NCBI RefSeq assembly: GCF_000235505.1
Contig: NZ_JH379027.1
Coordinates: forward strand, 917,408 to 981,407
Source: Hungatella hathewayi WAL-18680
Lineage (GTDB): Bacteria; Bacillota; Clostridia; Lachnospirales; Lachnospiraceae
Length of the DNA stretch: 64,000 nt
Direction: 5' to 3'
Position numbers and translations under genes: made by a program. This document shows, in pieces, positions 42,068 through 63,732 of this stretch (its first letter is position 1; the number at the start of each line of letters is the position of its first letter). The notes under the pieces were generated by a model that ran no database searches, was not told where the DNA came from, and saw only the letters and a program-made list of their open reading frames with translations.

Positions 42068-42116
42068 CAATTTGAAAAATCCGGAAACTATTGGTAAAAG
42101 CGAAAGGGGTAGGGCA

Positions 42117-43448: not shown

Positions 43449-43481
43449 ACCTGGTCTGTTTAAACCGGATAGGAGGCTGCC

Positions 43482-44375: not shown

Positions 44376-44382
44376 ATTGTTT

Positions 44383-45222: not shown

Positions 45223-45260
45223 GGGCAGCCTGATGAAACTAGAGTGAGAAAGGAGAAGTT

Positions 45261-46376: not shown

Positions 46377-46392
46377 GAAGGAATTAGAGCAG

Positions 46393-47871: not shown

Positions 47872-47898
47872 TTCTATAAAACAGTGGGGAAAGGTGTC

Positions 47899-48888
47899 GT
47901 GAACAATATGGCAGCCAGAATAGAGGATGTTGCGGAAAAAGCCGGTGTTGCGGTGGCAACTGTTTCAAGAGTCATGAATAACCGGGGGGCAATATCAGAA
48001 AAAACAAGGAACAAAGTCTGGAGTGCAATTCAGGAGCTGGACTATCATCCCAGTCAGATTGCCAGAAATCTGCAGAGTCAAAAGACAGGGATTGTAGGTG
48101 TTATTGTACCTGACGTCAGCCACAATTTTTTTGCCAGGGAGGTCAGGTATCTGGAGGGAGCATTATGCGAGCGTGGGTATAAAATGATGCTTTGCAACGC
48201 CATGCATCAGAAGAATCTGGAGAGGGACTATATCCATATGCTGCAGTGCAACAAAGTAGATGGAATTATCCTGGCAAGTCATACACTGAAAAATGAGGTT
48301 TACGAAAAACTGAATCTGCCGCTGGTATCTCTGGACCGTTATCTTGGAGAAAACATTCCGGTGGTAACTTCCGACCATTATCAAGGTGGGATATTGGCGG
48401 GAAATGTTTTGGCAGAAAACAGATGTAAGTGTGTGGTTCAAATCTGTGGTGATGTCCGAATTGCAAAACCTTCTGACGACAGGCACGCGGCAGTTGAAGC
48501 TGTTTTAAAAAAGGCGGGAATTCGGTGTGAGCGTATGGGAATCCCTATGAATGTATTTGAGTATGGCGATTATAAAAAGCTGGTTTCCGATTTGTTTGAC
48601 CAATATCCGGAGGCAGACGGCATTTTCTGTGTTGATAACATTGCCTGTGCTGTTTTACAGGAGGCAGCTAAGCGTGGGATTCCTGTGCCTGAGAAATTGA
48701 AGGTGATGGGATATGATGGAAATGATGTATCCAGAATGACAATTCCGGTGTTGACTACGGTGGAACAGCAGATGGAACCGCTGGCCAGACAGGCGGTAGA
48801 TATTCTGATGGAGCAGATAGAGGGAAATAAAGTGATTGGAGTTTATAAAATTCCTGTGTTACTGGTGAAGGGAGAATCGGCAATATAA
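47899..48888 (+). CDS. LacI-family regulator of the fructan locus
   Basis: Repressor of 329 residues. N-terminal helix-turn-helix IEDVAEKAGVAVATVSRVMN, hinge around YHPSQIARNLQSQKTG, then the LacI effector domain (VGVIVPDVSHNFFAREV, VVTSDHYQGG, VMGYDGND, TTVEQQ). It follows the GH32 gene by 27 bp and most likely binds the two palindromes at 42011-42067. GTG 47899 is used because GGGGAAAGG lies upstream; ATG 47908 is also possible. Confidence 0.88.
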   Translation: MNNMAARIEDVAEKAGVAVATVSRVMNNRGAISEKTRNKVWSAIQELDYHPSQIARNLQSQKTGIVGVIVPDVSHNFFAREVRYLEGALCERGYKMMLCNAMHQKNLERDYIHMLQCNKVDGIILASHTLKNEVYEKLNLPLVSLDRYLGENIPVVTSDHYQGGILAGNVLAENRCKCVVQICGDVRIAKPSDDRHAAVEAVLKKAGIRCERMGIPMNVFEYGDYKKLVSDLFDQYPEADGIFCVDNIACAVLQEAAKRGIPVPEKLKVMGYDGNDVSRMTIPVLTTVEQQMEPLARQAVDILMEQIEGNKVIGVYKIPVLLVKGESAI

Positions 48889-49022: not shown

Positions 49023-49075
49023 ATGGAAGAAATTACCAGAAAGCATTTAGATGTTTTTCTTGTAATTTCTTCCAT
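49023..49075 (+). repeat. Perfect 14-bp inverted repeat before recombinase 1
   Basis: ATGGAAGAAATTAC (49023-49036) and GTAATTTCTTCCAT (49062-49075) are perfect complements around a 25-nt loop, about 50 bp before the recombinase ATG. A TATAAT word at 49016-49021 precedes it, so the hairpin may sit in the recombinase mRNA leader. The rest of 48889-49126 shows no gene. Confidence 0.6.
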
Positions 49076-49126: not shown

Positions 49127-49984
49127 ATGAATAAATACAAAAATTTGACCGTCTCCAAAGATATGCTGCCGGCCTACCGGGAGTATCTGCGGGATGAGGA
49201 ACGGAGCAGGGCTACTGTGGAGAAATATCTTCGGGATGTGAAGGTGTTCCTGGAATATGTGGGGGAGAACCAGGTGTTGGGGAAAGAGAGAATCCGGGAG
49301 TATAAGGAGGAACTGCGGGAGCGGTATAAGATATCCAGTGCCAATTCCATGCTGGCGGCGGTGAACAGCTTTTTGGTGTTTCTGGGGAGAGAGGAATTGA
49401 AGGTGAAGCTGTTTAAGGTGCAGAAGGTGTTGTATAGCAGACCGGAGCGGGAGATGACGGAGAAGGATTATGAAAAGCTGGTCCGGGCGGCTAGGCGGTG
49501 CGGGGATTTGAGTATGAGCATGCTGCTCCAGACCATTGGGAGCACCGGGATTCGCATCAGTGAGCTGCGGTTTATCACTGTGGAATCACTGGAAGCGGGG
49601 CGGGCGGAGATCTACAATAAAGGGAAATCGCGGGTGGTGCTGCTACCGGTGGAGTTGAGCAGGATGCTGAAGAAATATTGCAGGGAGGCCGGGATATTGT
49701 CTGGGAGCATTTTTGTCACGAAGCATGGGAATCCGGTGGACAGAAGCAATGTGAGCAAGAAAATGAAGCAGCTGGCCAGGGAAGCCGGCGTGGATGAAAA
49801 CAGAGTGTTTCCGCATAATTTCCGGCATCTGTTTGCCAGGATATTTTATAGTGTGGAGAAGGATGTGGTGAGACTTATGGATTTGCTGGGGCATGCCAGC
49901 ATCAGCACGACCAGAATTTACACCATGACAACGGAGGACCAGCCGAGGCGGCAGATGTCGCGGATGAAGCTGGTGCTAGGGTAG
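49127..49984 (+). CDS. Tyrosine recombinase 1, probable DNA invertase
   Basis: XerC/D-type site-specific recombinase, 285 residues. An N-terminal SAM-like core-binding domain (residues ~10-90) is followed by the catalytic domain with the full set Arg143 (TGIRISELRF), Lys167, His230 and Arg233 (HNFRHLFA), His256 (LLGHAS) and nucleophile Tyr265. It lies 40 bp before the first inverted repeat of a 358-bp promoter-containing segment, so it most likely inverts that segment, as RecV does in Clostridioides difficile (analogy). Only 8 residues differ from recombinase 2 at 62457. GAAGGAGGG precedes the ATG. Confidence 0.92.
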   Translation: MNKYKNLTVSKDMLPAYREYLRDEERSRATVEKYLRDVKVFLEYVGENQVLGKERIREYKEELRERYKISSANSMLAAVNSFLVFLGREELKVKLFKVQKVLYSRPEREMTEKDYEKLVRAARRCGDLSMSMLLQTIGSTGIRISELRFITVESLEAGRAEIYNKGKSRVVLLPVELSRMLKKYCREAGILSGSIFVTKHGNPVDRSNVSKKMKQLAREAGVDENRVFPHNFRHLFARIFYSVEKDVVRLMDLLGHASISTTRIYTMTTEDQPRRQMSRMKLVLG

Positions 49985-50057
49985 CTGGAAACAGCCATCC
50001 GGCGAAAAAATAAAAACACCCCATAATATGTATTATGAGGTATCAATATCAAATAGA

Positions 50058-50075
50058 TAAGGGATTCTTCCCTTA
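50058..50075 (-). promoter_or_regulatory. Leader hairpin in inverton 1
   Basis: TAAGGG / CCCTTA stem with a 6-nt loop, a few bases downstream of the start of transcription from the minus-strand promoter. The equivalent in inverton 2 is GAAGGG / CCCTTC, a compensatory pair change that indicates selection on structure. Confidence 0.55.
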
Positions 50076-50086
50076 CGATATAGTCT

Positions 50087-50114
50087 ATTATACCCACTTT
50101 CGTAAAAATTGCAA
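50087..50114 (-). promoter_or_regulatory. Promoter inside inverton 1, currently facing the recombinase
   Basis: On the minus strand TTGCAA (50114-50109) and a perfect TATAAT (50092-50087) are 16 bp apart. The same promoter occurs unchanged in inverton 2. In the present orientation its transcript would cross the left repeat and run antisense into the recombinase gene. Confidence 0.8.
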
Positions 50115-50413
50115 GGTTTGAAATGGAAATTGTTGCAAAATCCGACGAAAGATTCGCAGAATTGTGGAACGCTGGGGAGAGAAAATGGTGATTGGACGTG
50201 AAAGGTCAAAATCGCCTGTTTGTTGTGTCCAAATGTTTATAAGCAGAGTTCCTGCATTCTAAAGTATTTCCGATATATCTATAAATTCAATCGAAAAGTT
50301 ATTCCAGATAGATACCAATTGGTCTTTTCCTTGAGCCGTATGAGAAAACTCTGGTTATGCCTTACTTCATAATACATATTACCGGGTCAACCCTGAAAGG
50401 AAGGTGCCAGACC

Positions 50414-51277
50414 GTGGAGACGGCGGGATACAGAGGCAGGTCCCGCAGGCAGGAGCCGAAGGGGAAAACAAAAAAAGAGAGAAAAACCTCCCATTTTCGG
50501 ACGGTCCGATTCGGGGGATTCGATGAGAACCAGATGATCTGTTACCTGTGGGATATTGTGAAATCCGTGGAGGCGGCTCAGGATGCCGGAAATGGTTGCG
50601 GGGCCGGAAATCGCCGCGGAATCGGAAACAGCCGTGAGACCGGAAACGGCCGCGGAGATGGAGCGGGCCGGGATGCGGACCCCCTCACCAGGCTGGGGAA
50701 ACAGATGCGCAGCCAGATTCGGGTGGAAATCCGACGCTATTTTGTGAGACGAAGGCGCAGAAATGTGAGGATGGCGCTTAGTATGGCGGCGGTGATTGTC
50801 TGCATTGCGGTTGTATTCGGCTGTTTGATTGGCGTGGACCGGGTGTCAGGAAATTCCATGTATCCGTATTTGAATCACGGAGACTGGATTGTATATAGCC
50901 GGATAGGCGAAAAGTATCAGAGGAATGAAGTTATCGTCTTTGAGAAAAATGGAGAGAGCATGGTAAAGAGGATAGCGGGCCTGCCTGGAGACCGGGTGGA
51001 AGTCAACTCGTCGGGAAGCCATGTGGTGGTTAACGGGCAGGAAATTCAGGAAGACTATGTGACACTGTCGGATGCAGATGTCGGAAACAAAAAAGCGAAT
51101 ACAGAGAAAGCAGAGGAACAGCCCGGAATGACCCAGACAGTGATGAACGGGCAATATCTGGTGCTGGGGGACAACCGCAGCGTGTCAATCGACAGCCGTG
51201 ACAGCAGCATCGGAACGGTGCCGTCCGGAGAAATACAGGGAAGAGTGATTTTGATTATCAGGGGGAATGGAGGATAA
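50414..51277 (+). CDS. Signal peptidase I with long N-terminal extension
   Basis: Membrane serine peptidase that removes signal peptides from exported proteins, 287 residues. The catalytic Ser148 is in SGNSMYP, the Lys185 in MVKRIAGLPGD, and the closing motif is LGDNRSVSIDSRD, so it is the bacterial Ser/Lys type. One helix spans about 119-141. The ~118-residue N-terminal part is unusual: it includes a SHFRTVRFGGFDENQ-like motif conserved in the second copy (63733) and a Gly/Asn/Arg-rich stretch at 58-86. GTG 50414 is chosen because GAAAGGAAGG precedes it and the second copy starts the same way. It is the first gene of the surface operon and probably processes its products. Confidence 0.88.
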   Translation: METAGYRGRSRRQEPKGKTKKERKTSHFRTVRFGGFDENQMICYLWDIVKSVEAAQDAGNGCGAGNRRGIGNSRETGNGRGDGAGRDADPLTRLGKQMRSQIRVEIRRYFVRRRRRNVRMALSMAAVIVCIAVVFGCLIGVDRVSGNSMYPYLNHGDWIVYSRIGEKYQRNEVIVFEKNGESMVKRIAGLPGDRVEVNSSGSHVVVNGQEIQEDYVTLSDADVGNKKANTEKAEEQPGMTQTVMNGQYLVLGDNRSVSIDSRDSSIGTVPSGEIQGRVILIIRGNGG

Positions 51278-51278
51278 C

Positions 51279-53552
51279 ATGAGCCGTTTTATATTACATA
51301 CGAAAACAGGAAAGAGGGAATATCGGAAGTATCTGGCCACAGGGACCGCCTGTCTCATCCTGGCCTTTGTGGCAGGGTATATGATTCACAGTATCGGGAC
51401 GGCCAGAGCCAAGAGCCGGGAACTGGTGCTGCTTTACACAGAGGAAGAATTCGCCCAGTACCTGCTGGATACGGAAAGTGAGGAATATAACCTGAATGGC
51501 AGATATCAGCTGGAGGAAGATTTGGATTTAAGCTGGCTGGAATATTCTATCGGGACGAATATAGAGCCGTTTACCGGAAGTCTTGACGGGAACGGGCATA
51601 TGATAAGCGGCCTTGGGAGACCGCTGTTTGGAGTGGTGGAGGACGCGGAGATAGAGAACCTGTTTTTAAGCGAGGCGGAGATACTGAGTCCATTTACCTA
51701 TTCCGATGGGGAGCATTACGTGGACGGGTATGGAGCATTGGCAGCCTATGCCATAGACTCCCGGATAGCAGACTGTGGAATGAATGGAGAGATATACACG
51801 GCGAGTCCTTCGGAGGCGGAATATCTGCTGGAAAAAGGGAATACAGAGGAGGACGAGGAACAGAAGGGACCTGGGATGGCAGAAAGTACGGCTGTTTCAG
51901 AGACATCGGAAGAAATAGGCCCTGGTCTCACGGAGGAAGAAAAAGGGAAAAACGAAGGAGACACTGGAATAGAAGCGGGCCCCGGATATGAGTCAGAGTC
52001 TGGGGAAGGTATGGAATCGGAAAGCAGTGCGACAGATGAGAGCAGTACAGATGGAGAGAAGGGCCCCGCAGGGGAAACAAGCGCCTCAGAAGAAAGCAGC
52101 AGTGAAGAAGCTGGAAATACAGGAGGAGCAGCCGGTGAAGGAACTGACAACTCCGAAGGAGCGTCCGATAGTGAAGAATCTGGAGAAACAGAAAACGGTG
52201 GTGGAAGCGGCAATACGGAAGGGACCAATAGCAGTGAGTCGACAGGCAGTACTGATGGAGAAAGTGTTGAAGAAACCAATAACGGCAATGCATCCGGCAG
52301 TACTGGAGGAGAGAGCAATTTAGAATCGGAAGGCAAAGGAGAAACACCAAGCAGCGGAGTATCTGAGGGCACCGGAGGAAATGATGGCGTCGCTGGAAAC
52401 ACGAATGAGTCAAATAACAGCGGCACAGAAGGTACAGCAGCCGGGCAGATAGAAGCAAACCAGCCATTACCAGAATCTGGCGGGACATCTGACGGTACGG
52501 TGGCGGCAAACATTTCAGAAACAGTAGGCTATCAAGCTATCAGCCGCAGACAGCTGATGTTAAAACTGCCCGTCATGGTAGATGCCAATACGGAATCTAT
52601 CCAGGACTCTATCCAGTCAGCCAGCCCATCCGACGCAACCCCGCCCGACGCCCAAGGCCCGGCGGGAAGTGATGCGCCATCCGATTCCGGCGGACAGAAT
52701 TCGCAGATTGATGAGAGTGACATGACATTTGATGAACCAGAAGAATCAATTGAATACATCGGCAACCCGGACGGCGATATTTACATCCTAGTAACAGCGG
52801 AACGGGTAACTGTTGGTGGTCTTATCGCAGAAACATCCGGGGAAACGCTGATATCCAACAGTTTTACACTGGCGACAATCAGCTCCGCATTGGGAGATAT
52901 TGAGACATATACCGGAGGTTTTGTCGGAATCACAGGACATGACACCCGGATTGAGAACAGTTATGCCTCCGGGCTGGCAGACAGCGATGACATTACAGGA
53001 GGTTTCACTGCTATCCACAACGGTTTCATTCAGAACAGCTACTCCGCCATGATAATCGGAGAATCAGGAAACATTCGTGCAGCTTTCTGCGCGACAGGGG
53101 AAGGTCAGCTGGACGGCTGTGTGTATGACATCCAGATGGCCTGCACCGATGAAATATTTTCGCTGGCGGAGGAATTACCGGACGAAGATGGGGAGCGATT
53201 AAAGGGTCTACATACCAGCCGCATGACAGGCGCAAACCCGGAGATTCTGGGAACCTGGTACACCACCGAGGGAGCCTATCCCCAGATAGAATCCTTTGCA
53301 TTGAGCGACCAGGAAACAATTACATCGGCATCGAAGGTATCCGCCATCGCCCTGTCTCTGCCGGAGGACCGCTCTCTGGCTGATGCGGTGACAGACGGAG
53401 AACTCATTCTGCCAGCCGAAATCGATGGCCAGACCATTGACTGGGAGGCCGATGGCAGTATCCGCATTGATGAAAACAACCAGATACTGGTAGAGAGTGG
53501 AAGTGTTCCGGAGACAGAAAATAACAATCAGACAAATACAGCAGCCAGATAA
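51279..53552 (+). CDS. Surface protein with GLUG-like repeats and Ser/Glu/Gly-rich stalk
   Basis: Membrane-anchored extracellular protein of 757 residues. An N-terminal helix (about 19-40) serves as anchor or signal. Residues ~80-140 form a beta-helix-like unit (FTGSLDGNGHMISGLG, AEIENLFL). About 187-410 is a low-complexity stalk of Ser, Glu, Gly, Thr and Asn. GLUG-like units return at ~510-590 (TGGFVGITGHDTRIENSYASG). No LPXTG motif or C-terminal anchor was seen. The ATG at 51279 follows GGAGG; an alternative at 51267 overlaps the signal peptidase gene. Function unknown; adhesin or assembly scaffold are guesses. Confidence 0.8.
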   Translation: MSRFILHTKTGKREYRKYLATGTACLILAFVAGYMIHSIGTARAKSRELVLLYTEEEFAQYLLDTESEEYNLNGRYQLEEDLDLSWLEYSIGTNIEPFTGSLDGNGHMISGLGRPLFGVVEDAEIENLFLSEAEILSPFTYSDGEHYVDGYGALAAYAIDSRIADCGMNGEIYTASPSEAEYLLEKGNTEEDEEQKGPGMAESTAVSETSEEIGPGLTEEEKGKNEGDTGIEAGPGYESESGEGMESESSATDESSTDGEKGPAGETSASEESSSEEAGNTGGAAGEGTDNSEGASDSEESGETENGGGSGNTEGTNSSESTGSTDGESVEETNNGNASGSTGGESNLESEGKGETPSSGVSEGTGGNDGVAGNTNESNNSGTEGTAAGQIEANQPLPESGGTSDGTVAANISETVGYQAISRRQLMLKLPVMVDANTESIQDSIQSASPSDATPPDAQGPAGSDAPSDSGGQNSQIDESDMTFDEPEESIEYIGNPDGDIYILVTAERVTVGGLIAETSGETLISNSFTLATISSALGDIETYTGGFVGITGHDTRIENSYASGLADSDDITGGFTAIHNGFIQNSYSAMIIGESGNIRAAFCATGEGQLDGCVYDIQMACTDEIFSLAEELPDEDGERLKGLHTSRMTGANPEILGTWYTTEGAYPQIESFALSDQETITSASKVSAIALSLPEDRSLADAVTDGELILPAEIDGQTIDWEADGSIRIDENNQILVESGSVPETENNNQTNTAAR

Positions 53553-53573
53553 CAAAACGTGGGAGGAAACGGA

Positions 53574-56500
53574 ATGAGAACGAAACGGAAAAAACATAAT
53601 AGGAAGCGCTGGGCGTTAAGTCTTCTGCTTGCGGTTCTCATCATGCCGGGAGTAAAACCGTTTGCCGCCGCTGCGGAAGAAAGCCAGGCCGAAGAGACCA
53701 CGTTAGAACCGGTTACAGAGACACCACAGACAGAAGCCGGCTCCGTCACTGCCACGTTAGGCGGGATATCCCGGACGGTATCGCTCAAGGTAGCACCTCG
53801 CGAAGCCGTTACATACGCTGACTATGCCGACTGGGCTGGGGTAGGGGCAGTACAGACAGAAGAAGACCTGAAAGCGACCGGGGCGCTGGAGGGAAGTGGC
53901 ACAGTTGAGGCCCCATGGAAGATAGGAAAGCCGGAAGCATTAGCCTGGTTTATGGTGAAGGTAAATGCCGGAGAATTGACGAAAGATTATCAAAATGTAC
54001 TTCTTACAGCAGATATCAGTCTTCGTGGAGACGGATTCGGAGGCAGTGCTGCCACACCGCTGGAATGGGTACCCATTGCGTCTTATTCAGGTACCTTTGA
54101 TGGAGGGAATCATGAGATTGATTATTTGTGTGGAGAAGGAACTGACAAATCCCTGGGGTTGATTAATAGAATGGCGGGAGCTGTTATCCAAAATGTTCAT
54201 ATCGGTGCCAACAGTTCATTGAATGGCAGTCAAGCCGCTAGTATTGCTGTGGTTGCGGCGAATGGAGTGAATACAATGACAAATTGCTCCAACAAGGGGG
54301 CTATGACAGGTATTGGGCATAGTGCTGGCCTGGTATGTGGTGTAAGTGACGGAGGGCGTTTAGATATAAGCAGATGCTGGAATGAAGGGAAAATTGTTGG
54401 CGAAAGTGGATTATCAGGGGGGCTTGTAGGGTGGTATTACAGTAGCAGCAGTGCTGGAAGCATGATAACCGACTGTTATAACAGTGGTGAAATTGTGTGT
54501 AATACGACGGATGCTTCAGGTGCCTCTGGCATTGCAGGCACTTATGTATATGATAGCCGTGTTCGTGCTTATATTGTGAATTGTTATAACGTAGGAATAA
54601 TGAGTGGGAAGAGTAATAAATTCAGCATTACGACTAACAATTCTTCTGGCAGATTCTCCAACTGTTTTTACTATTTAGGTGACGGTCACAGCGGTTCATC
54701 ATCATACGCCGGAGCTACTGCGCTTACTGAGACGCAACTGAAATCCTGGGCCGCCGCCTATGCATTAAATGGCCAGAATATGGACGGAGCCTGGAAATAT
54801 ACAGAGGGGCAATACCCAGTGTTTGGTGAACTAGACCCTCCTAATGATTGGTCTGTGGTGGGGCAGGGTGTTATTGACGGATTGATAACCTCTTCTGCTC
54901 TGGCGGGAGATGGAACGAAAGATTCACCGCTTCAGATAAGTACCGCCGAACAGATGGCAGTGCTGGCAGTAAGGGTGAATGCCGGAGAGACGTCCCTCTG
55001 TGCCGACCTGAACGCAGATATCAACTTGTTTGGAGAGCCGTACAGCAGAGTTTCCTATGATGCGGGAGAGCCAGATATCGTCAATAAAGCACTACGGTGG
55101 GTACCAATCGGTAGTGATGTGGATGGGAAGCGATACACAGGAACCTTCAACGGAAACGGTTATACCATTTCTGCCATGCGGGCAAAAGACAGTCGAAGCC
55201 AGGGACTCTTTGGTACATTAGGAAATAATGCCTCCATTAAGAAAACCAGTATTTCCGATATCCGGATTGAGGTTTCAGGTACTGGTGGTGGAGGAATCGC
55301 AGGATTTGTGAATGGAACTGGCGTAACGATAACCGAGTGTGGGCTAGTGGGTACTTTCAGCGGAAGCGGCATGTTTTTTGGAGGCTGTGTGGGCGCCGCA
55401 TCTAATACGGCAGAGATGACTTTGGATGGATGCTATAACTTAGGTAATATTGATATCACAGGTGGAGTTAGTGTAGGAGGCATCTTCGGCACCACAGCAG
55501 AGTACACCGTTCCGGGTCATGTGACAATTCGAAACAGCATGAACAGAGGAAGTGTGGCGGGCGATGCGCATATTGGTGGAATCGTCGCATATGCAAAAAA
55601 AGGGGCAGTAACCATAGCAGGATGTTATAATGCCGGAGTTGTATCGGCGGCCCCCACCGGCGATAAGGGTTCCATAGTTGGTTGCTATGCTGATGTGAAT
55701 GATACGGATATTAAAGATTGTCTGATTGAGAAAGAGTATGAATATGGAACCAACGTAAACTGCCTGGTAGTAGAGCGGAAGGCCCTTGGAACCTGGGGAG
55801 CCGCCTGGCGGTTGAACGGGGGCAGTCTGCAGCAGACTACGGGGCTCTCATGGACTTACGATAAGGACAGCGAATATCCGGTCTTAGGTGCCACAGGCCT
55901 GCCATCCGCAGAAAGCTGGGAGCAGGTAGGGGAAGCGGTGGAATACGGCCTTATCAAAGACAAGGGTAAACCATCTGGAGATGGAAATGCATCCCCCTAT
56001 CAGATAACGGCCCCGGAACAGCTGGCGTGGTTTGCCTACCAGGTCAATGTACCGAAAGACAGGGAAATCAAAGGTGTTCTTGTAAACAATATCGATATGA
56101 AAGCGGCGGAGGGAAGCTACATATCCGATGGGCGCCTGAACTGGATTCCAATCGGAAAAGACCAGCTCCATATGTACCAGGGAGCCTTTGAAAGTAAGGA
56201 TTTATCCAATCCTGATGATACCCATAAGATATACCGGATTCAGAACCTGTATGCCATCACAGAAGACGCCGCCGGATTATTCGGCTATGTGTGGAACGGA
56301 ACAATTACCAGAATCGGATTAGCCAATGTAGATATAAGCGGAGCCTCAGCCGGGGGAATTGTAGGAAATCTTCTGGGGACGGCGGAGGCTGCCCAGTGCT
56401 ACAACCGGAGTGAAAGCCCTGGAAGCGGGAGCGTGACAGCCATTGACAGTGCCGGAGGAATCGCGGGACAGGTAAGTGGCGGGGTAGTCCGGGACTGTTA

Positions 56501-57833
56501 TAACCAGGAAACTGTGATCAAGGGGACAGAAGCATCGTCCAGCGCCGGAGGAATTGCAGGGAGTGTGTTGGGAACGATACGAAACAGTTACAGCGCCTGC
56601 GGAACAGCTGGAAGTATTACGGCCGGCGGCAGCACCAGTGCCGCTGGAGCGGTAGCCGGATATCCTGACGGTGTAATGAGCCAGTGTTACAGTGATACCG
56701 GATGGAGTGGAGACAGCGTGTCGATGGCGGACAGCACGCATGTCAGCCGTTTGTATGCCACCGGGAATACGGAGCTGCAGAAGCAGACCGCTGAACTGAA
56801 CACCGTAAACGGGACCCAGCAGATGAAGGAAAACCGAATCTGGTATACCAGCCTGGAATCAGAGGCAACAAAAGGCTGGCCGACACTGGAGCCGCCAGTA
56901 AAGATGCTGTCCCTGGGAACGGTGACGCCAGTGGACAACTCATCCGGAGCAGCCGGAGAGCAGTTATCCCTGGGCTCAGGAGTCACTATATCCGATGCAA
57001 AAGTACGCGATGTCAGCCAGGAAACCACCGGAACGCAGACGGTATCCCTGGCGGAGTGGAAGATTGAATACTATACCGGCTGGGGAACCACAAGCGCCAA
57101 TGGAAAGATCGGTCTGTCCGGAGTGGGAGGCACATCCGCCATACTGAAGCCGGACCAGATGTCACTGGAGAATCCGGTGCAAGGACTTGGAACCATCAGC
57201 GGCCTGAAGGTATATACAGGAGCAGCATGCACGTATCCGACAGACAGAGACATCCTGGTGGAACTGTCTTCGGGAAGTGACCGTTATGAGATACGGTTTA
57301 CCATCAAGGGAGTTACCAGCAAGAGCCTGGTCGTGGACCTGCCGAATGGGGTGGCGATGGCAGATGAACTGATGCCGGATGGAACCGAGAAGACCGCATA
57401 CAGCGTGGATACGGCCATCCAAAACAGCCAGAATTATCCCATGGAGGGAAAGATACTCAAAGCAGTGCCCATCAGTAAAACAGACATAGCCACCTACCAG
57501 GCTCTGAAACCAATCGCGAAAACGACGAATTATGGAAGCGGCCAGATTTATGAAGCTGGAGTCAGACTGGGAATCACGAATCCGAAGACGGGAACCGGAG
57601 TTATTAGTGGAGACCTTTACTATAATCCGGATGCAACAGGAGATACCAATCCCTGGATGACATGCCAGTTAAAAGCTGCCGGAGGGACCCTGCCATACCG
57701 ATATTTCCTGAAATACAAGGCAGACCCGTACTATGACAGCGAACATCCAAACTTTGGATACACCATCAGTTACCAGTTCGGGCTTATGGCGAATGATTAC
57801 AGCGCTGCGGCCGGAGCCGTGGCATGGCAGTAG
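53574..57833 (+). CDS. Giant secreted GLUG-repeat surface protein
   Basis: Exported protein of 1419 residues. A basic start and hydrophobic segment ending PFAAAAEE form a signal peptide with a likely AAA cleavage site. The body has three large cassettes beginning near residues 87, 426 and 782. Each opens with a W..VG word, then a G.G....P.QI..PE(A/Q)(L/M)A segment and a WVPIG-type strand, and continues with GLUG-like turns such as CYNSGEI and GGIAG. This pattern predicts a long beta-solenoid, as in IgA-peptidase GLUG regions and large adhesins. The C-terminal ~350 residues lack the repeats. Likely the main exposed or structural component of the operon. GGAGG sets ATG 53574. Confidence 0.82.
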   Translation: MRTKRKKHNRKRWALSLLLAVLIMPGVKPFAAAAEESQAEETTLEPVTETPQTEAGSVTATLGGISRTVSLKVAPREAVTYADYADWAGVGAVQTEEDLKATGALEGSGTVEAPWKIGKPEALAWFMVKVNAGELTKDYQNVLLTADISLRGDGFGGSAATPLEWVPIASYSGTFDGGNHEIDYLCGEGTDKSLGLINRMAGAVIQNVHIGANSSLNGSQAASIAVVAANGVNTMTNCSNKGAMTGIGHSAGLVCGVSDGGRLDISRCWNEGKIVGESGLSGGLVGWYYSSSSAGSMITDCYNSGEIVCNTTDASGASGIAGTYVYDSRVRAYIVNCYNVGIMSGKSNKFSITTNNSSGRFSNCFYYLGDGHSGSSSYAGATALTETQLKSWAAAYALNGQNMDGAWKYTEGQYPVFGELDPPNDWSVVGQGVIDGLITSSALAGDGTKDSPLQISTAEQMAVLAVRVNAGETSLCADLNADINLFGEPYSRVSYDAGEPDIVNKALRWVPIGSDVDGKRYTGTFNGNGYTISAMRAKDSRSQGLFGTLGNNASIKKTSISDIRIEVSGTGGGGIAGFVNGTGVTITECGLVGTFSGSGMFFGGCVGAASNTAEMTLDGCYNLGNIDITGGVSVGGIFGTTAEYTVPGHVTIRNSMNRGSVAGDAHIGGIVAYAKKGAVTIAGCYNAGVVSAAPTGDKGSIVGCYADVNDTDIKDCLIEKEYEYGTNVNCLVVERKALGTWGAAWRLNGGSLQQTTGLSWTYDKDSEYPVLGATGLPSAESWEQVGEAVEYGLIKDKGKPSGDGNASPYQITAPEQLAWFAYQVNVPKDREIKGVLVNNIDMKAAEGSYISDGRLNWIPIGKDQLHMYQGAFESKDLSNPDDTHKIYRIQNLYAITEDAAGLFGYVWNGTITRIGLANVDISGASAGGIVGNLLGTAEAAQCYNRSESPGSGSVTAIDSAGGIAGQVSGGVVRDCYNQETVIKGTEASSSAGGIAGSVLGTIRNSYSACGTAGSITAGGSTSAAGAVAGYPDGVMSQCYSDTGWSGDSVSMADSTHVSRLYATGNTELQKQTAELNTVNGTQQMKENRIWYTSLESEATKGWPTLEPPVKMLSLGTVTPVDNSSGAAGEQLSLGSGVTISDAKVRDVSQETTGTQTVSLAEWKIEYYTGWGTTSANGKIGLSGVGGTSAILKPDQMSLENPVQGLGTISGLKVYTGAACTYPTDRDILVELSSGSDRYEIRFTIKGVTSKSLVVDLPNGVAMADELMPDGTEKTAYSVDTAIQNSQNYPMEGKILKAVPISKTDIATYQALKPIAKTTNYGSGQIYEAGVRLGITNPKTGTGVISGDLYYNPDATGDTNPWMTCQLKAAGGTLPYRYFLKYKADPYYDSEHPNFGYTISYQFGLMANDYSAAAGAVAWQ

Positions 57834-57849
57834 ACGGGTGGCAGAACAG

Positions 57850-58557
57850 ATGAGAGAACAGAAGAGAAATCAAGAAAGCCAGCAGGAGGACTTACAGGAA
57901 GGACGGCAGGTGGACTGGAAAGAAAGACAAAAGGAAAAACGGCAGGAGAATCAGAGAGAAAAACAGCCGGAGAACGGGCAGATTGGAGGCGCTCCGATTT
58001 CCGGCCCGGCCGGAACGAAGACCAGTCGCTCCAAACACCGTCATCGCAGAAATCGGTGGATATCCGTGACGGTTGTGCTGCTGGTTGTGATACTTGGCTC
58101 AGCCGCCGCTGTGTCCTGTTATGGGTTCCCCACACCCATCCAGGCCCAGCTGGATATCCGCCCGGAAAAACATGCCCAAAAGGGTACTCTGACATCAGGA
58201 GAATCAGGGGAAGCAAAACCGGTGGAAGCCGGGAGCTTCCGGGTAATGCTCAACCAACTGCCCACCATAGAGATAGGCAGCCAGGACTGCAACATCGAAT
58301 ATGAGAACCCGGAGGAAAACCATTACAGCTCCAGAATCAGTCTGTATCTGAAAGAAACTGGCAGATTGATAGGCGGCACCACCCGCGTGGACCCGGGATA
58401 CTACGTGGAGAGCGTCCGGCTGAAAGAGAGTCTACCGCCCGGAGAATACCCGGTTACAGTCAGAATTGAATTGTTTGAGGACAAAACACCGGCTGGTGAG
58501 ATGTCCATCGATATCACACTGCGGATGATAGAAAACCAGGAAGGAGAGACAGGATGA
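57850..58557 (+). CDS. Single-pass membrane protein, surface operon paralogue 1
   Basis: A 235-residue protein with a long, highly charged cytoplasmic N-terminus (Gln/Glu/Arg/Lys-rich, possibly coiled coil), one helix near residues 75-100 (WISVTVVLLVVILGSAAAV) and an extracellular beta domain ending in LPPGEYPVTVRIELFED. The last part resembles the two following proteins. The start is uncertain: ATG 57850 or GTG 57838, neither with a good ribosome site, so translation may depend on the upstream gene. Overlaps the next gene by ATGA. Confidence 0.7.
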   Translation: MREQKRNQESQQEDLQEGRQVDWKERQKEKRQENQREKQPENGQIGGAPISGPAGTKTSRSKHRHRRNRWISVTVVLLVVILGSAAAVSCYGFPTPIQAQLDIRPEKHAQKGTLTSGESGEAKPVEAGSFRVMLNQLPTIEIGSQDCNIEYENPEENHYSSRISLYLKETGRLIGGTTRVDPGYYVESVRLKESLPPGEYPVTVRIELFEDKTPAGEMSIDITLRMIENQEGETG

Positions 58558-59099
58558 GCCACAAAAGAACACGCGTAATCCATATGAACCTGCTGGTCAT
58601 CGGCCTGTCAGTCCTGTTCTGTCTGGCGGTGCTGGTGGCAGCCGGATACCTGGTATCCACCCGCACCCAGCCAGTCCAGGCTGCCGCGGAACCCGTTTCT
58701 CTGGTCGCCGAAGGCAACGTGAAAACAGGAACCCTGAACCAGGACCCGGAGAAACGCCAGGAGGAGTTAAACCAGGTGGTGGAGGAGGGCATGCTGGCCT
58801 TCTCCATCAATGCCACCCCATTCATGAAAAACGGGACCTCCACAGCCAACCTTCTGATAGAGAACCCGCCTGGCAATGGAAAGCGGTTCACGATCACTAT
58901 CCAGAGAAATGACACGGAAGAAGTTATCTACCAGTCCGGCTACCTGGACCCGGAGCAGTACATCGATGATGTACCTCTGGACGTGGTGCTCCCCAAAGGG
59001 GAATACCCCTGCACGGCCTACTTTGACGCTTACCGGATCGAGGACAACGTCTACATCGGAAGAGCCGGAGCGGAGATTAAACTGTATGTTTTGGAGTAA
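58554..59099 (+). CDS. Single-pass membrane protein, surface operon paralogue 2
   Basis: 181 residues: short basic start, one helix at about 11-33, then an extracellular domain with VVEEGMLAFSINATPF, an IENP turn and LPKGEYPCTAYFDAY. Those words recur almost unchanged in paralogue 3 at 59149, and the GEYP strand also in paralogue 1. No known family recognised. Its ATG overlaps the preceding stop. Confidence 0.75.
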   Translation: MSHKRTRVIHMNLLVIGLSVLFCLAVLVAAGYLVSTRTQPVQAAAEPVSLVAEGNVKTGTLNQDPEKRQEELNQVVEEGMLAFSINATPFMKNGTSTANLLIENPPGNGKRFTITIQRNDTEEVIYQSGYLDPEQYIDDVPLDVVLPKGEYPCTAYFDAYRIEDNVYIGRAGAEIKLYVLE

Positions 59100-59148
59100 G
59101 CCCGGATGCCGTCCGGGCACCGGGTAGAAAGCAGGGAGGTGAAAGGAA

Positions 59149-59745
59149 ATGGAGATGGCGGAAGAAACACAAATCAGAGAGAGCCGGGGCAGCCGCAGAG
59201 GGGCCCCCGGCGGCAGAAACGGAAAAACGAATATCAAAGTGCTGGCCTTCCTTCTTCTGGCCGTCTGCTGTATGGCAGGAGCCGCCGCAGGCGTTTATTT
59301 AAGCCGCCAGAGGGCCGCCCCGGTATCCCAGCAGGGCCTGACCTATGAGGCCAACGTGGTCTCCGGTGATATCCCCGGAAAGACAAGGGAACAGCGCCAG
59401 AAAGAACTGGACAGCGTAGTGGAGGAGGGCATGCTTGCCATGTCCATGAATGTAACGCCCTTCGGGAAAACCACCGGAGCGGACTGTTCCATCAACTGGA
59501 TGATAGAAAATCCCTCCAACCAGGGAAAACTGATCCGCGTGGAAATCACCCGTGACGACACCGGGGAGAAGATATTTGAGACAGGAGCCATCCGTCCGGG
59601 AAACTATCTGGAATCAGGCCCGTTGCTCATACCTCTTCCCGCCGGGGAGTACGACTGCACTGCCGTATTCCTGGCATACCAGGAAGAGACCGAGACCCTG
59701 ATGGGGCAGGCCGCCGTCAAAATCAAACTGGTCTTACAGGAATGA
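59149..59745 (+). CDS. Single-pass membrane protein, surface operon paralogue 3
   Basis: 198 residues: a charged start (Arg/Gly-rich), one helix at about 29-50, then an extracellular domain with VVEEGMLAMSMNVTPF, IENPSNQGK and LPAGEYDCTAVFLAYQ. Closely related to paralogue 2. GGAGGTGAAAGGA gives a strong ribosome site for ATG 59149. Likely a partner subunit of the same surface assembly (inference). Confidence 0.76.
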   Translation: MEMAEETQIRESRGSRRGAPGGRNGKTNIKVLAFLLLAVCCMAGAAAGVYLSRQRAAPVSQQGLTYEANVVSGDIPGKTREQRQKELDSVVEEGMLAMSMNVTPFGKTTGADCSINWMIENPSNQGKLIRVEITRDDTGEKIFETGAIRPGNYLESGPLLIPLPAGEYDCTAVFLAYQEETETLMGQAAVKIKLVLQE

Positions 59746-59761
59746 AAGGAGGGAAACGTTT

Positions 59762-60529
59762 ATGAATAAGAATAGGAAACAGAACCATAGAACATCCGGT
59801 ATGTCAGACATTGCCGAAATCTCTGGAAGCTCTGGAAGTTCCAGAAACTCCAGAATTGTCGGAAGCTTCAGGATATCCGGAAACTCCATAATCGCCGGAA
59901 TCCGGGCCATTCTTCTTGCGTTTGTCCTCTGTATCGTACAGGCCGGTCCAGTTTTGGCAGAGGCAGAGATGGGCGATGTCACCTTCCCCATCCAGGATTC
60001 CAGTGCGGCGCAGGACTCCGTCCTGACTGGCAACATCAACGTGGAACTGTTATCCATCGCCCTTCCGGCCGGCGGCCTGGAGTTCACCGTGGACACATTA
60101 AGGGAATTCAGCCTGGACAATCCAGGTGGCCAGTTTGAGGATATGGACCTGCCAATCATGAACCGTTCCAAAGTTCCCATCCAGGTGGAAGTTTCCCAAG
60201 TGGCGGAGGTGACAAAGGGCGACCTGCATTTCGAGGATAAATTCTCCGACCAGGAGAAACAGTCCTTCCAGCTGGTAGACCAGATATCCAAGGTAGGCCC
60301 CATGGGAACAGCCATCCTGGTGCTGGGAGTCTCCGGCCAGACATACAGCACAGCCCAGGAATTCGAACGGCAGGCATTTCTTCCAGGAAGAACCGGCAGC
60401 ATTTACATCACGGAAATCCCGGCGGAGGAGACCGTACACCTGAAACTGTACGGAAAAGTGGCCCCGGATTTCTACGGACAATACCAGTTCACCGTCCGCC
60501 CCACATTAAAAATCAGCGCAGCCAGATAA
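59762..60529 (+). CDS. Secreted subunit-like protein, minor
   Basis: 255 residues. A long, Ser/Arg-rich N-region precedes a helix and a probable cleavage site VLAEAEMG near residue 67. The mature part has LTGNINVELLSIALP, MNRSKVPIQVEVSQV and HLKLYGK, which match the order of words in the next protein. The two therefore share a fold; this longer-leader form may be a tip or anchor subunit (inference). No known domain recognised. Confidence 0.75.
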   Translation: MNKNRKQNHRTSGMSDIAEISGSSGSSRNSRIVGSFRISGNSIIAGIRAILLAFVLCIVQAGPVLAEAEMGDVTFPIQDSSAAQDSVLTGNINVELLSIALPAGGLEFTVDTLREFSLDNPGGQFEDMDLPIMNRSKVPIQVEVSQVAEVTKGDLHFEDKFSDQEKQSFQLVDQISKVGPMGTAILVLGVSGQTYSTAQEFERQAFLPGRTGSIYITEIPAEETVHLKLYGKVAPDFYGQYQFTVRPTLKISAAR

Positions 60530-60600
60530 CAGGAACTGCCGGCTGGTTGATATAAAGCAGCAAAGCATTAAAAAGAAAAAGGAGTAGGAGGATTCACACA

Positions 60601-61299
60601 ATGAAAAGAGGAAAAAGAGCAGCAGCGGTGGCATTGGCCATCGGATTGGCAGTGACAGGGAGCATGGCGTCCCTTGCGGATACGCCGGGAGTCAAAGAGG
60701 TCGGAGGCCTTGGGGCAGACGGAACAACAGACTCCACATTGACAGGCACCATCAATATTACAAACATTCAGGTAGAGGTGCCGATTAAGGCCAGCTTTGA
60801 CATTGACCCCAACGTAGCGATAACAGCGGATACTACGATTGTGACAAGCACGGATGCCACAAACACAAATCAGATAACGGGACAGGCAACCAACTACACG
60901 ATTAAGAATCTGTCTAAAGTGCCTTTGGTAGTCAGCATAACGGGGATAAAAACAAATGACGGCACAACGGATGGAATTCCGGAACTTGTCAATACGATGG
61001 ATGACCTTACCGGAAAAAATGTGATGTTTGCAGTCCGCAAAAATGGCGAAGCAATCAAATATCCAGCAGCCGCAACAGATAGCACCAAAAAATGGATGAT
61101 GGCTGATGCGATTAAACCAGACAGCCCTTACTATGTAACAGAGGGCGGAGCTTCCGCCAATGTCCTAGGCCCAGTAGGTTCCTCCACTGCAGATATAACC
61201 ATGAAACTGTATGGGGCCACAGGGGATGGATGGAGAAATGGAGAGAGTTTCGATGTGATTCCCACATTCACCATTGCATTGCAGAGTGCAAGTTCATAA
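60601..61299 (+). CDS. Secreted subunit-like protein, probable major subunit
   Basis: 232 residues. A clean signal peptide (MKRGKRAAAVALAIGLAVTG) with cleavage near SLADTP. The mature part has LTGTINITNIQVEVP, FDIDPN, IKNLSKVPLVVSITG, ITMKLYGA and a closing PTFTIALQS strand, predicted all-beta. It is related to the previous protein. A strong AGGAGGA site and compact secreted form fit an abundant structural subunit, perhaps of a pilus-like or matrix fibre; this is inference, and no TasA, sortase or pilin motif was seen. Confidence 0.78.
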   Translation: MKRGKRAAAVALAIGLAVTGSMASLADTPGVKEVGGLGADGTTDSTLTGTINITNIQVEVPIKASFDIDPNVAITADTTIVTSTDATNTNQITGQATNYTIKNLSKVPLVVSITGIKTNDGTTDGIPELVNTMDDLTGKNVMFAVRKNGEAIKYPAAATDSTKKWMMADAIKPDSPYYVTEGGASANVLGPVGSSTADITMKLYGATGDGWRNGESFDVIPTFTIALQSASS

Positions 61300-61329
61300 A
61301 ATTAATTAAAAATATAGGAGGAAACCCAT

Positions 61330-61524
61330 ATGGCAACAAGAATCCCATGCACCCCATTCGGCAAAAAGATGAAGATTGCAATGGTAGAGCAGGACATCCC
61401 CCAGCAGGAACTGGCCAGACGCCTTGGCATCGCCAACTCCACCGTCAGCGATATTATTTACGGCCGCAACCAGTGTGAGCGTACCAAGGAACGTATTGCG
61501 GAAACCCTTGGAATCAAGGCATAA
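61330..61524 (+). CDS. Small XRE-type HTH protein closing the operon
   Basis: A 64-residue DNA-binding protein that is nearly all helix-turn-helix (QQELARRLGIANSTVSDIIYGRN, followed by ERTKERIAETLGIKA). It follows the subunit gene by 30 bp with an AGGAGG site, so it is made when the operon is ON. It could feed back on the recombinase or on the operon. A tail of a related gene remains at 40357-40401. Confidence 0.85.
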   Translation: MATRIPCTPFGKKMKIAMVEQDIPQQELARRLGIANSTVSDIIYGRNQCERTKERIAETLGIKA

Positions 61525-62281: not shown

Positions 62282-62304
62282 ATATATCACACTCCTTTTC
62301 TTAT

Positions 62305-62456: not shown

Positions 62457-63314
62457 ATGAATAAACGCAAAAATTTGACTATTTCCAAGGAAATGCTGCC
62501 GGCCTACCGGGAGTATCTGCGGGATGAGGAACGGAGCAGGGCTACTGTGGAGAAATATCTTCGGGATGTGAGGGTATTCCTGGAATATGTGGGGGAGAAT
62601 CAGGTGTTGGGGAAAGAGAGAATCAGGGAGTATAAGGAGGAACTGCGGGAGAGGTATAAGATATCCAGCGCCAATTCCATGCTGGCGGCGGTGAACAGCT
62701 TTTTGGTGTTTCTGGGGAGAGAGGAGCTGAAGGTGAAGCTGTTTAGGGTGCAGAAGGTGTTGTACAGCAGACCGGAGAGGGAGATGACGGAGAAGGATTA
62801 TGAAAAGCTGGTCCGGGCAGCCAGGCGGTGCGGGGATTTGAGTATGAGCATGCTGCTCCAGACCATTGGGAGCACCGGGATCCGCATCAGTGAGCTGCGG
62901 TTTATCACTGTGGAATCACTGGAAGCGGGGCGGGCGGAGATCTACAATAAAGGGAAATCGCGGGTGGTGCTGCTGCCGGTGGAGTTGAGCAGGATGCTGA
63001 AGAAGTATTGCAGGGAGGCCGGGATATTAACCGGGAGCATTTTTGTTACGAAGCATGGGAATCCGGTGGACAGAAGTAATGTGAGCAAGAAAATGAAGCA
63101 GCTGGCCAGGGAAGCCGGAGTGGATGAAAACAGAGTGTTCCCTCATAATTTCCGGCATCTGTTTGCCAGGATATTTTATAGCGTGGAGAAGGATGTGGTG
63201 AGACTGATGGATTTGCTGGGACATGCCAGTATCAGCACGACCAGAATTTACACCATGACAACGGAGGACCAGCCGAGGCGGCAGATGTCGCGGATGCGGA
63301 TGGTGCTGGGTTAG
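62457..63314 (+). CDS. Tyrosine recombinase 2, probable DNA invertase
   Basis: Second 285-residue recombinase, identical to recombinase 1 at 277 positions and with the same catalytic set (Arg143, Lys167, His230, Arg233, His256, Tyr265). The eight changes cluster near the N-terminus (4, 9, 12, 39, 97) and at 192, 281 and 282; none touches a catalytic residue. It precedes its own inverted-repeat segment (63355-63700) and a second signal peptidase gene. The leader GAAGGAGGGACTGTT is the same as in copy 1. Confidence 0.92.
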   Translation: MNKRKNLTISKEMLPAYREYLRDEERSRATVEKYLRDVRVFLEYVGENQVLGKERIREYKEELRERYKISSANSMLAAVNSFLVFLGREELKVKLFRVQKVLYSRPEREMTEKDYEKLVRAARRCGDLSMSMLLQTIGSTGIRISELRFITVESLEAGRAEIYNKGKSRVVLLPVELSRMLKKYCREAGILTGSIFVTKHGNPVDRSNVSKKMKQLAREAGVDENRVFPHNFRHLFARIFYSVEKDVVRLMDLLGHASISTTRIYTMTTEDQPRRQMSRMRMVLG

Positions 63315-63389
63315 CTTGATAAGCCTAGCAGGTGCATAAAATAAAAATACCCCATAATGAGTATTATGCGGTATCTACAACATCTAAAA

Positions 63390-63405
63390 GAAGGGATTTC
63401 CCTTC
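63390..63405 (-). promoter_or_regulatory. Leader hairpin in inverton 2
   Basis: GAAGGG / CCCTTC stem with a 4-nt loop, at the same place as the hairpin in inverton 1 but with one base pair exchanged on both sides. Confidence 0.55.
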
Positions 63406-63417
63406 ATGATATAGTCT

Positions 63418-63445
63418 ATTATACCCACTTTCGTAAAAATTGCAA
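63418..63445 (-). promoter_or_regulatory. Promoter inside inverton 2, currently facing the recombinase
   Basis: Minus-strand TTGCAA (63445-63440) and TATAAT (63423-63418) with the same 16-bp spacer sequence as inverton 1. Confidence 0.8.
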
Positions 63446-63732
63446 GATTGGAAATGGAAAAAATTGCAAAATACGAGGAAGAATTCGCAGAATTGTGGTG
63501 TAATGGGAAGAAAATCCGGTGATTTGGCTTTTGGGGCTGAAATCGCCTGTTTGTGGTGCCATAAAATCATTTACATCTGTGCTGTTCTGTTTGATATCCC
63601 AATATGAGAAGCGAAAATGTAATAAAAAATCATAGGAAATGGCAATATACTGCTGTCCATTTCAAGAAATAAGGAATATTCCACTTCATAATACTCATTA
63701 CAGAGTAAAAGCCGAAAGGAAGGTGCCAGTCC

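What the first reader, a model, noticed from the sequence alone, without database searches (positions are those of the whole stretch)
49127..51277. Recombinase-linked invertible promoter controlling a surface operon (module 1)
A tyrosine recombinase with an intact active site is followed 40 bp later by 18-of-19 inverted repeats (50024-50042, 50363-50381) enclosing ~320 bp. The segment has a strong promoter that now points away from the adjacent signal peptidase operon. Known tyrosine-recombinase invertons such as those flipped by RecV in C. difficile or Mpi in Bacteroides have this layout. Predicted result: ON/OFF phase variation of the whole 50.4-61.5 kb operon, with this sequence showing OFF.
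Basis: partly seen in the sequence, partly recalled or inferred. Interest (0 to 1): 0.95.

Follow-up and report, generated by a model that had tools for sequence, protein, structure and literature searches.

The report
Thirty-five flippable promoters, private crossover codes
This bacterial genome carries 35 related cassettes in which a short promoter segment lies next to a recombinase gene that would likely flip it, nearly all of them in front of a surface-protein operon (33 of 34 readable promoters point the OFF way); each readable cassette has the same six-letter crossover code at both ends, the codes mostly differ between cassettes, and 34 of 35 are followed by a gene for almost the same small DNA-binding protein, which is predicted to let the switches influence one another.

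Summary
A 285-aa Xer-like tyrosine recombinase (49127-49984) is followed by two inverted 26-bp sites (50017-50042, 50363-50388) around a promoter that points away from the signal-peptidase operon 50414-61524: OFF in this sequence. It is one of 35 such modules in this genome (about 8% of it). In 34 of 34 readable modules the central 6 bp (21 versions) is identical in both sites of a module while the flanking arms differ, which maps the crossover and suggests an address code. 33 of 34 readable promoters point OFF. The recombinase-side site doubles as a predicted terminator for OFF transcripts. Related cassettes occur across the family: inverted repeats in 48 of 49 readable loci; 2 of 14 pairs of similar cassettes are flipped relative to both flanks. 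Unexpected: 34 of 35 modules are followed by the same 63-64-aa XRE-type regulator, 87-100% identical in protein although its genes differ at synonymous sites; in another genus a homologue lies directly behind 4 of 6 related recombinase loci. The switch reading is strong; cross-talk by the shared regulator is inference. No reads or second strain were available, so flipping in this species is not directly shown.

The parts
49127..49984 (+). Xer-like tyrosine recombinase, 285 aa, predicted to flip the segment
   Evidence: Pfam Phage_integrase 92.7 bits; XerC/XerD models 117.3 bits each, below their cut-offs; catalytic residues present
50003..50044 (-). predicted intrinsic terminator for OFF-direction transcripts, formed by the left recombination site plus the flanking A-tract
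   Evidence: left-site hairpin (dG -6.1 or lower) and at least 7 T in 10 in all 33 OFF modules
50017..50042 (.). left dif-like recombination site; central hexamer TATGTA at 50027-50032
50058..50075 (-). stem-loop just downstream of the promoter (would be in the 5' leader of the ON transcript)
   Evidence: covarying stem among 26 distinct paralogous sequences: 88.5% of cells paired against 78.6% in shuffles
50079..50115 (-). 37-bp near-invariant promoter block (-35 TTGCAA, 16 bp, -10 TATAAT, dyad ATAGACTAT), now pointing away from the operon (OFF)
50363..50388 (.). right recombination site; hexamer TACATA at 50373-50378 (reverse complement of TATGTA); outer half degenerate
50414..51277 (+). signal peptidase I, first gene of the operon (GTG start)
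   Evidence: TIGR02227 120.7 bits; homologue in the same place in 33 of 35 modules
51267..53552 (+). 761-aa protein with one hydrophobic N-terminal segment (by eye), GLUG repeat and sub-threshold M26_N similarity
   Evidence: similar protein in 34 of 35 modules
53559..57833 (+). 1424-aa secreted-type repetitive protein, likely adhesin-like
   Evidence: no Pfam or NCBIfam hit
57733..60529 (+). four smaller proteins (274, 181, 198, 255 aa), each with a hydrophobic stretch (by eye)
   Evidence: the first three have homologues in several other modules within the 9 kb fetched
60601..61299 (+). 232-aa secreted-type protein, possible fibre subunit
   Evidence: model pLDDT 78.7; only weak pilin-like fold hits, best E 0.011
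61330..61524 (+). 64-aa XRE/HTH_3 regulator, last gene of the operon
   Evidence: HTH_3 31 bits; 37 copies in the genome
61535..61586 (+). likely operon terminator (hairpin and T-run)
   Evidence: inverted repeat I4, sequence; the scan did not list it
62457..63314 (+). module 2 recombinase, 97% identical to that of module 1
63348..63707 (.). module 2 invertible segment; hexamer TGAGTA; promoter block 63410-63446 also in OFF orientation

Best explanation
Window 50017-50388 is a promoter-bearing segment between two inverted dif-like sites that share one central hexamer, its promoter points away from the 50.4-61.5 kb operon in this sequence (OFF), and the adjacent Xer-like recombinase would likely invert it to switch that operon on. 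Shown by sequence: the two sites, the shared hexamer (34 of 34 readable modules), the promoter orientation, the signal peptidase / large surface-type protein / HTH gene order behind it, and flipped copies of related cassettes in relatives. Inferred: the adjacent enzyme (perhaps also its close paralogues, since the arms are nearly alike) binds the arms and exchanges strands across the 6 bp; because strand exchange needs identical overlap, differing hexamers would keep many modules from recombining with one another. In OFF, the transcript would stop at the recombinase-side site, which is a strong hairpin followed by a T-run; in ON, the junction towards the operon is mostly a weak hairpin without T-run, so transcription would pass. 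The HTH protein at the end of the operon, shared by nearly all modules, is predicted to act in trans, most likely on the shared promoter block; the sign of its action is unknown.
For: Repeats, recombinase and promoter in the window. 35 modules in one genome. Hexamer identical in 34 of 34 while arm columns differ; shuffles mean 2.06, maximum 11. 33 of 34 readable promoters OFF, 1 ON. Terminator asymmetry: mean dG -9.6 against -2.65 kcal/mol, 8.8 against 0.7 T per 10 nt (33 modules). Relatives: repeats in 48 of 49 readable loci; 2 of 14 similar pairs flipped between co-oriented flanks; 10 of 50 draft loci have a contig end within 400 bp downstream of the recombinase, 0 of 50 upstream, as mixed orientations would cause. 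HTH: follows 34 of 35 modules, 13-84 nt behind an open frame in 34 of 35 copies, purifying selection, homologues directly behind invertons in another genus.
Against: No inverted copy of this very segment was seen; no reads and no second strain of the species were available (searches). Scaffold-gap ends in the six gap loci I read show repeated sequence in the same orientation only. No terminator was predicted on the + strand between recombinase and operon, so OFF may be leaky. In L060 the two hairpins are equally strong and in L050 nearly so. HTH binding is untested; L054 has no HTH copy downstream, and that of L056 is 25 kb away. The resemblance of G252 promoters to this block is not specific to HTH carriers: 2 of 42 other relatives also come within 4 mismatches, and so does L079, which has no detected HTH, while HTH-linked L082 has 5. 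Adjacent modules avoid shared hexamers no more than chance predicts (0 of 13, expected 0.40).
Confidence: 0.88

Rival explanations
1. The segment is a fossil: sites and recombinase are relics, the promoter is locked in OFF and the operon is silent or driven by read-through from the recombinase gene.
For: 33 of 34 readable promoters are OFF; no inverted copy of this segment seen; no predicted terminator between recombinase and operon on the + strand.
Against: Hexamer identity in 34 of 34 modules despite 21 versions, catalytic residues kept in 34 of 34 alignable modules, covarying leader stem and flipped relatives point to continued use.
Confidence: 0.08
2. One or a few recombinases act in trans on all modules, and the local gene is mostly redundant (Mpi-like master control).
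For: Arms nearly identical between modules; recombinases of the other modules are mostly 66-97% identical to the query; L049 has an in-frame stop codon in its recombinase yet is the ON copy.
Against: 33 of 34 alignable modules keep a recombinase without stop codon (that of L067 is cut by a scaffold gap), and relatives with few copies still have a repeat pair beside each (48 of 49).
Confidence: 0.3
3. The HTH protein does not act on the switches but on another target such as motility, as MrpJ does in Proteus mirabilis.
For: mrpJ is the last gene of an invertible-promoter operon, present in 10 of 17 fimbrial operons, and represses flhD (PMC9820224, passages); three flagellin-type genes lie in this genome.
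Against: HTH and promoter block are the most conserved parts of the modules, and a homologue stays directly behind the inverton in G252, where CpsB/CapC-like genes follow in three of four cases. The same review says MrpJ can also activate its own operon.
Confidence: 0.3
4. Matched hexamers reflect only copying between the two repeats (for example gene conversion), not strand-exchange constraint.
For: Both copies mostly sit within 400 bp and inverted repeats can convert.
Against: Complete identity is confined to the 6 central bp among variable columns, while arm columns 5, 6, 21 and 22 differ in most modules; conversion tracts would not stop there every time.
Confidence: 0.07

Closest known systems
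Clostridia inverton group 139 with tyrosine recombinase group 35 (Jin et al. 2025, PMC11892184; abstract and outline, sections 6-8 and passages read)
   Same: 32 of its 33 invertons are from Clostridia, adjacent tyrosine recombinase, segment of similar size (26-bp repeats about 206 bp apart in the Clostridium sp. D5 example)
   Different: Its repeat motif is in supplements I could not read; the text I read mentions no matched private hexamers, no terminal HTH, no 35-copy array
mrp fimbrial switch of Proteus mirabilis (MrpI / invertible element / MrpJ; PMC9820224, passages)
   Same: Adjacent recombinase, 252-bp invertible promoter, surface operon whose last gene is a DNA-binding regulator also present in other operons
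   Different: Gram-negative chaperone-usher fimbriae; the review calls MrpJ MarR-like; here the regulator is nearly identical in 35 copies
Bacteroides capsule invertible promoters (global invertase Mpi, UpxY/UpxZ; PMC12632263, passages)
   Same: Many surface loci with invertible promoters plus regulators encoded in the operons; UpxZ acts across loci
   Different: One global invertase there; local recombinases and differing hexamers here; different kind and position of regulator
Xer/dif resolution system
   Same: Sites resemble dif (CATAA-6 bp-TTATG; E. coli dif recalled); recombinase is nearest to XerA/XerC/XerD-type models and structures
   Different: Below the XerC/XerD model cut-offs; paired inverted sites, many copies
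RecV-controlled switches of Clostridioides difficile (PMC7446863 and PMC9286219, abstract starts in search listings)
   Same: Site-specific inversion of switch sequences in Clostridia by a recombinase
   Different: One RecV serves several sites (recalled); no sequence comparison was made here

Membership tests
Tyrosine-recombinase inverton (generic kind) | Recombinase with complete catalytic set beside the segment | tested here: met
Tyrosine-recombinase inverton (generic kind) | Inverted repeats flanking a promoter | tested here: met
Tyrosine-recombinase inverton (generic kind) | Both orientations occur | tested here: inconclusive
   Yes in relatives (2 of 14 pairs) and one ON paralogue; not shown for this segment
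Clostridia inverton group 139 (Jin et al. 2025) | Its inverted-repeat motif | not testable with these tools
Mpi / Bacteroides capsule switches | One global invertase for the set of promoters, no local one | tested here: not met
   All 32 genome-wide promoter-block matches lie beside one of these recombinase genes; feature as stated in PMC12632263. Control in trans is not excluded
XerC / XerD | Score above the NCBIfam equivalog cut-off | tested here: not met
   117.3 bits against 335.15 (XerC) and 329.6 (XerD)
RecV switches of C. difficile | Sequence relationship to RecV | not tested
   No RecV sequence was compared
MrpI/MrpJ-type switch | DNA-binding regulator as last gene of an invertible-promoter operon | tested here: met
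   resemblance of layout only
MrpI/MrpJ-type switch | Homology of the regulator to MrpJ | not tested
   Layout compared only; no MrpJ sequence fetched

The most novel reading that the evidence does not exclude
A bacterial counterpart of allelic exclusion: about 35 surface operons, each flipped at its own six-base address so that near-identical recombinases can coexist without scrambling the chromosome, and each producing the same tiny HTH protein that reports 'one operon is ON' to the shared promoter of all the others.
Probability: 0.28. Interest if true: 0.87.

Novelty: new variant of a known kind. Interest (0 to 1): 0.73.

Why it matters
It is a very large array of predicted phase-variable surface operons with built-in features that can be tested at once: a six-base code that predicts which sites can recombine, a recombination site that also looks like the OFF terminator, and one regulator shared by nearly all modules. 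It offers a natural test of how many near-identical recombinase switches coexist in one chromosome and whether a cell shows one surface at a time.

Tried and rejected
The genus holds no other genome in the searchable set. Gapped site+promoter pattern over the family also missed this genome because my spacing range was wrong; it says nothing. Scaffold-gap repeats as evidence of mixed orientation: rejected, same orientation. Whether adjacent modules avoid shared hexamers: not significant. Shared promoter block as a mark of HTH-linked invertons in G252: weakened on re-check. Rfam: nothing at gathering score in the window. Fold of the 232-aa protein: no hit at E <= 0.001. The fold of the 181-aa protein (pTM 0.56) was not searched. 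One search missed minus-strand loci (not reoriented) and was superseded.

Dropped rows: L051 (right site in a scaffold gap) and L065 (no site) before the 34-module counts; L066 and L068 are other recombinases; L121 was a wrong fetch; L074 is the same place as L118. In L059 and L063 the right site was first taken from a gap duplicate and then set by hand with a string that holds the centre, so 32 of the 34 hexamer matches are blind to the four inner bases. The two outer hexamer positions rest on few variants (1 and 3 of 34). The 48 of 48 hexamer matches in relatives are biased, because repeats were found by identity. The 50 loci of the contig-end count are the 59 distinct ones less 9 from four genomes held as one contig; when fetching I had also passed over loci lying within 400 bp of a contig start, by my reading five with the end downstream and three with it upstream.

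Full report
The observation. The recombinase ORF is 49127-49984. The longest inverted repeat listed for 48.5-64 kb lies just behind it: 50018-50042 and 50363-50387, 25 nt, 88% complementary, 320 nt apart. A promoter-like TTGCAA-16-TATAAT lies on the minus strand at 50114-50087, facing away from the operon. The signal peptidase gene most likely starts at GTG 50414, behind a Shine-Dalgarno-like GGAAGG and outside the segment. A second module with the same layout and the same OFF orientation begins at 62457.

Scale. The search with this recombinase gives 37 matches at E <= 1e-60 in its own genome of 5.70 Mb, the query included. Thirty-five of them belong to modules with the layout described here; L065 and L066 differ. 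A signal peptidase homologue follows in 33 of 35 (not in L049; in L051 a scaffold gap covers the place), and a protein similar to the 761-aa one in 34 of 35. From recombinase to HTH gene the modules span about 451 kb, about 8% of the genome. Among 396 other sampled family genomes none has a relative at E <= 1e-100 and 80 have one at E <= 1e-45 (at most six candidates per genome were scored); seven that looked richest there have 4-9 copies each.

The sites. Aligned on their dyad, the sites read TACCCCATAA-TNNNNA-TTATGCGGTA on the recombinase side. Comparing left and right site of each module, the six central columns agree in 34 of 34 modules although 21 different hexamers occur; outside them, columns 3, 5, 6 and 19-22 disagree in 8 to 26 of 34 modules. 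Shuffling right centres among modules gives a mean of 2.06 matches and a maximum of 11 in 100,000 shuffles. Right sites were located from the arms without using the four inner bases in 32 of the 34. No centre is self-complementary. This delimits a crossover of about 6 bp, as in Xer systems (established knowledge of Xer/dif). Recombinase pairs at least 85% identical differ in hexamer in 12 of 13 cases, for instance the two modules of this window (97% identical; TATGTA against TGAGTA) (32 modules). That fits an address read by base pairing between sites rather than by the protein. The codes are not unique: 18 of 561 module pairs share one. Selection for insulation itself is not shown: adjacent modules share none of 13, expected 0.40, P = 0.67.

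The OFF terminator. On the strand of the OFF transcript the recombinase-side site is a hairpin (dG -6.1 to -11.6 kcal/mol, mean -9.6) followed by a T-run (7-9 T in 10) in all 33 OFF modules. The predicted ON junction at the operon side averages -2.65 kcal/mol and 0.7 T in 10; L060 shows no difference in hairpin strength and L050 little. The modules are paralogues, so the paired test there (p below 1e-6) overstates independence. The degenerate outer half of the right site would thus let ON transcripts pass. Between promoter and left site lies a stem whose pairs covary among 26 distinct sequences: 88.5% of cells paired against 78.6% in shuffles and 19 cells changed on both sides against 8.2 (0 of 500 shuffles reach either), while the numbers of pairs changed on both sides (5 of 6; 27 of 500 shuffles) and of pair types (107 of 500) are less distinct.

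Orientation. 33 of 34 readable promoter blocks point OFF; L051 is hidden by a gap. The ON copy, L049, has a stop codon in its recombinase, no signal peptidase, and sits 430 bp before an HTH copy. In relatives, 24 of 47 invertons hold a promoter of at least 10/12; 19 of these point to the recombinase and 5 to the downstream gene (such calls are noisy in A+T-rich DNA).

Relatives. Of 59 distinct loci from other genera examined (39-52% identical recombinases), 49 have at least 400 bp downstream, and 48 of these have a repeat of 17-20/20 starting within about 360 bp of the recombinase, mostly with the same CATAA-TTATG core. Of 14 pairs of similar invertons (not all independent), two (L094/L095, L107/L108) are reversed relative to both flanks. 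Ten of 50 draft loci have a contig end within 400 bp downstream of the recombinase and none upstream, which mixed orientations would explain; repeats alone could too. The genes behind the repeats in relatives include signal peptidase-like, large secreted, glycosyltransferase-like and regulatory proteins (labels by eye except CpsB/CapC).

The shared regulator. The last gene of the operon (61330-61524) encodes a 64-aa HTH_3 protein. The genome has 37 copies: 35 at 87-100% identity, ten of them (the query included) at 100%. 34 of 35 modules have a copy downstream before the next module, mostly 9.7-16 kb away (L056 25 kb, L049 430 bp, L054 none; three copies are unassigned). In 34 of the 35 close copies the gene starts 13-84 nt after the stop of an open frame of at least 100 codons, as in an operon; the exception is the copy behind L049. 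Between the 35 copies the gene is 86% identical on average while sequences beside it are 27-30% identical (45% in the last 30 nt upstream); single-base codon differences summed over all pairs are 11,377 synonymous and 929 non-synonymous. So the protein is held constant by selection, not by recent copying. The promoter-side 18-mer TTTCGTAAAANTTGCAAG occurs exactly 32 times in the genome, at coordinates that all fall in modules, with no further site at 1-2 mismatches. In 298 other sampled genomes the HTH was found in one, G252, four times (E <= 1e-9), each 320-380 bp behind one of its six related recombinases, with CpsB/CapC-like genes next in three of the four (one of them tested against Pfam). 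Those three invertons resemble this promoter block (3-4 mismatches in 18) and have a TAGCTA dyad near the expected start; but L082, the fourth, has 5 mismatches, L079 without detected HTH has 4, and 2 of 42 other relatives also reach 3-4 (median 7), so the link of block and HTH is suggestive only. A regulator that stays with the switch while the cargo changes most likely acts on the switch or its promoter; this is inference. MrpJ, which represses motility and can activate its own operon, is the nearest model, and flagellin-type genes exist here.

Comparison with the literature. Jin et al. 2025 (PMC11892184; abstract and outline, sections 6-8 and passages) report Clostridia inverton group 139 linked to tyrosine recombinase group 35; this family may be the same, but their motif is in supplements that I could not open. 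PMC5903667 (passages) reports inversions in Clostridia mostly near signalling and chemotaxis genes. My searches listed no paper, by title and abstract start, on a many-operon system with private crossover hexamers or a shared terminal regulator outside the known Bacteroides and Proteus systems; I saw only the listed part of each search, and subscription papers and preprints are not covered.

Verdict. An invertible promoter in the OFF orientation is very likely (0.88). The kind is known; the scale, the matched hexamers, the terminator built into one site and the shared regulator make it a new variant. On re-check I lowered the novel case from 0.30 to 0.28, because the promoter resemblance in G252 is not specific to HTH carriers.

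Noticed in passing
61662-62290 (-): ParE-type toxin and RelB-type antitoxin genes lie between module 1 and module 2.
   Followed up: no
42072-48888 (+): Solute-binding protein, two permeases, DUF2961, GH32 and LacI-type genes: a sugar-use locus (probably fructans or sucrose) directly upstream of module 1.
   Followed up: no
49023-49075: Near-perfect 20-nt hairpin (95%, 13 nt between the arms) just upstream of the recombinase gene; role unknown.
   Followed up: no
L049 (G000:C1:1888713-1890173): The only ON-orientated copy: recombinase with an in-frame TAG, inverton, then an HTH gene with no surface operon between; its promoter lacks the ATAGACTAT dyad.
   Followed up: partly
L088 and L110: Inverton and flanks 99.6-100% identical in two genomes of different genera, suggesting recent horizontal transfer.
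   Followed up: no
L078-L082 (G252): Related invertons in front of an HTH gene and/or CpsB/CapC-like genes: candidate phase-variable capsules.
   Followed up: partly
L107 and L108 (G307): Two paralogous invertons in opposite orientation, each in front of an Rrf2-like regulator gene (label by eye).
   Followed up: no
L103 and L105 (G029): A second recombinase-like gene (by eye) follows the inverton, which has a different site core (CATTC or CATTT).
   Followed up: no
L066 (G000:C1:1635111-1635920): A more distant recombinase (50%) in the same genome with its own 22/22 inverted repeat, arms starting 231 bp apart.
   Followed up: no
L065 (G000:C2:456616-457449): A 58% relative of the recombinase without a recognisable site and with two catalytic positions changed in my alignment.
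   Followed up: no
G000:C3:502239-506829: Three flagellin-type genes, relevant to an MrpJ-like role of the HTH protein.
   Followed up: partly
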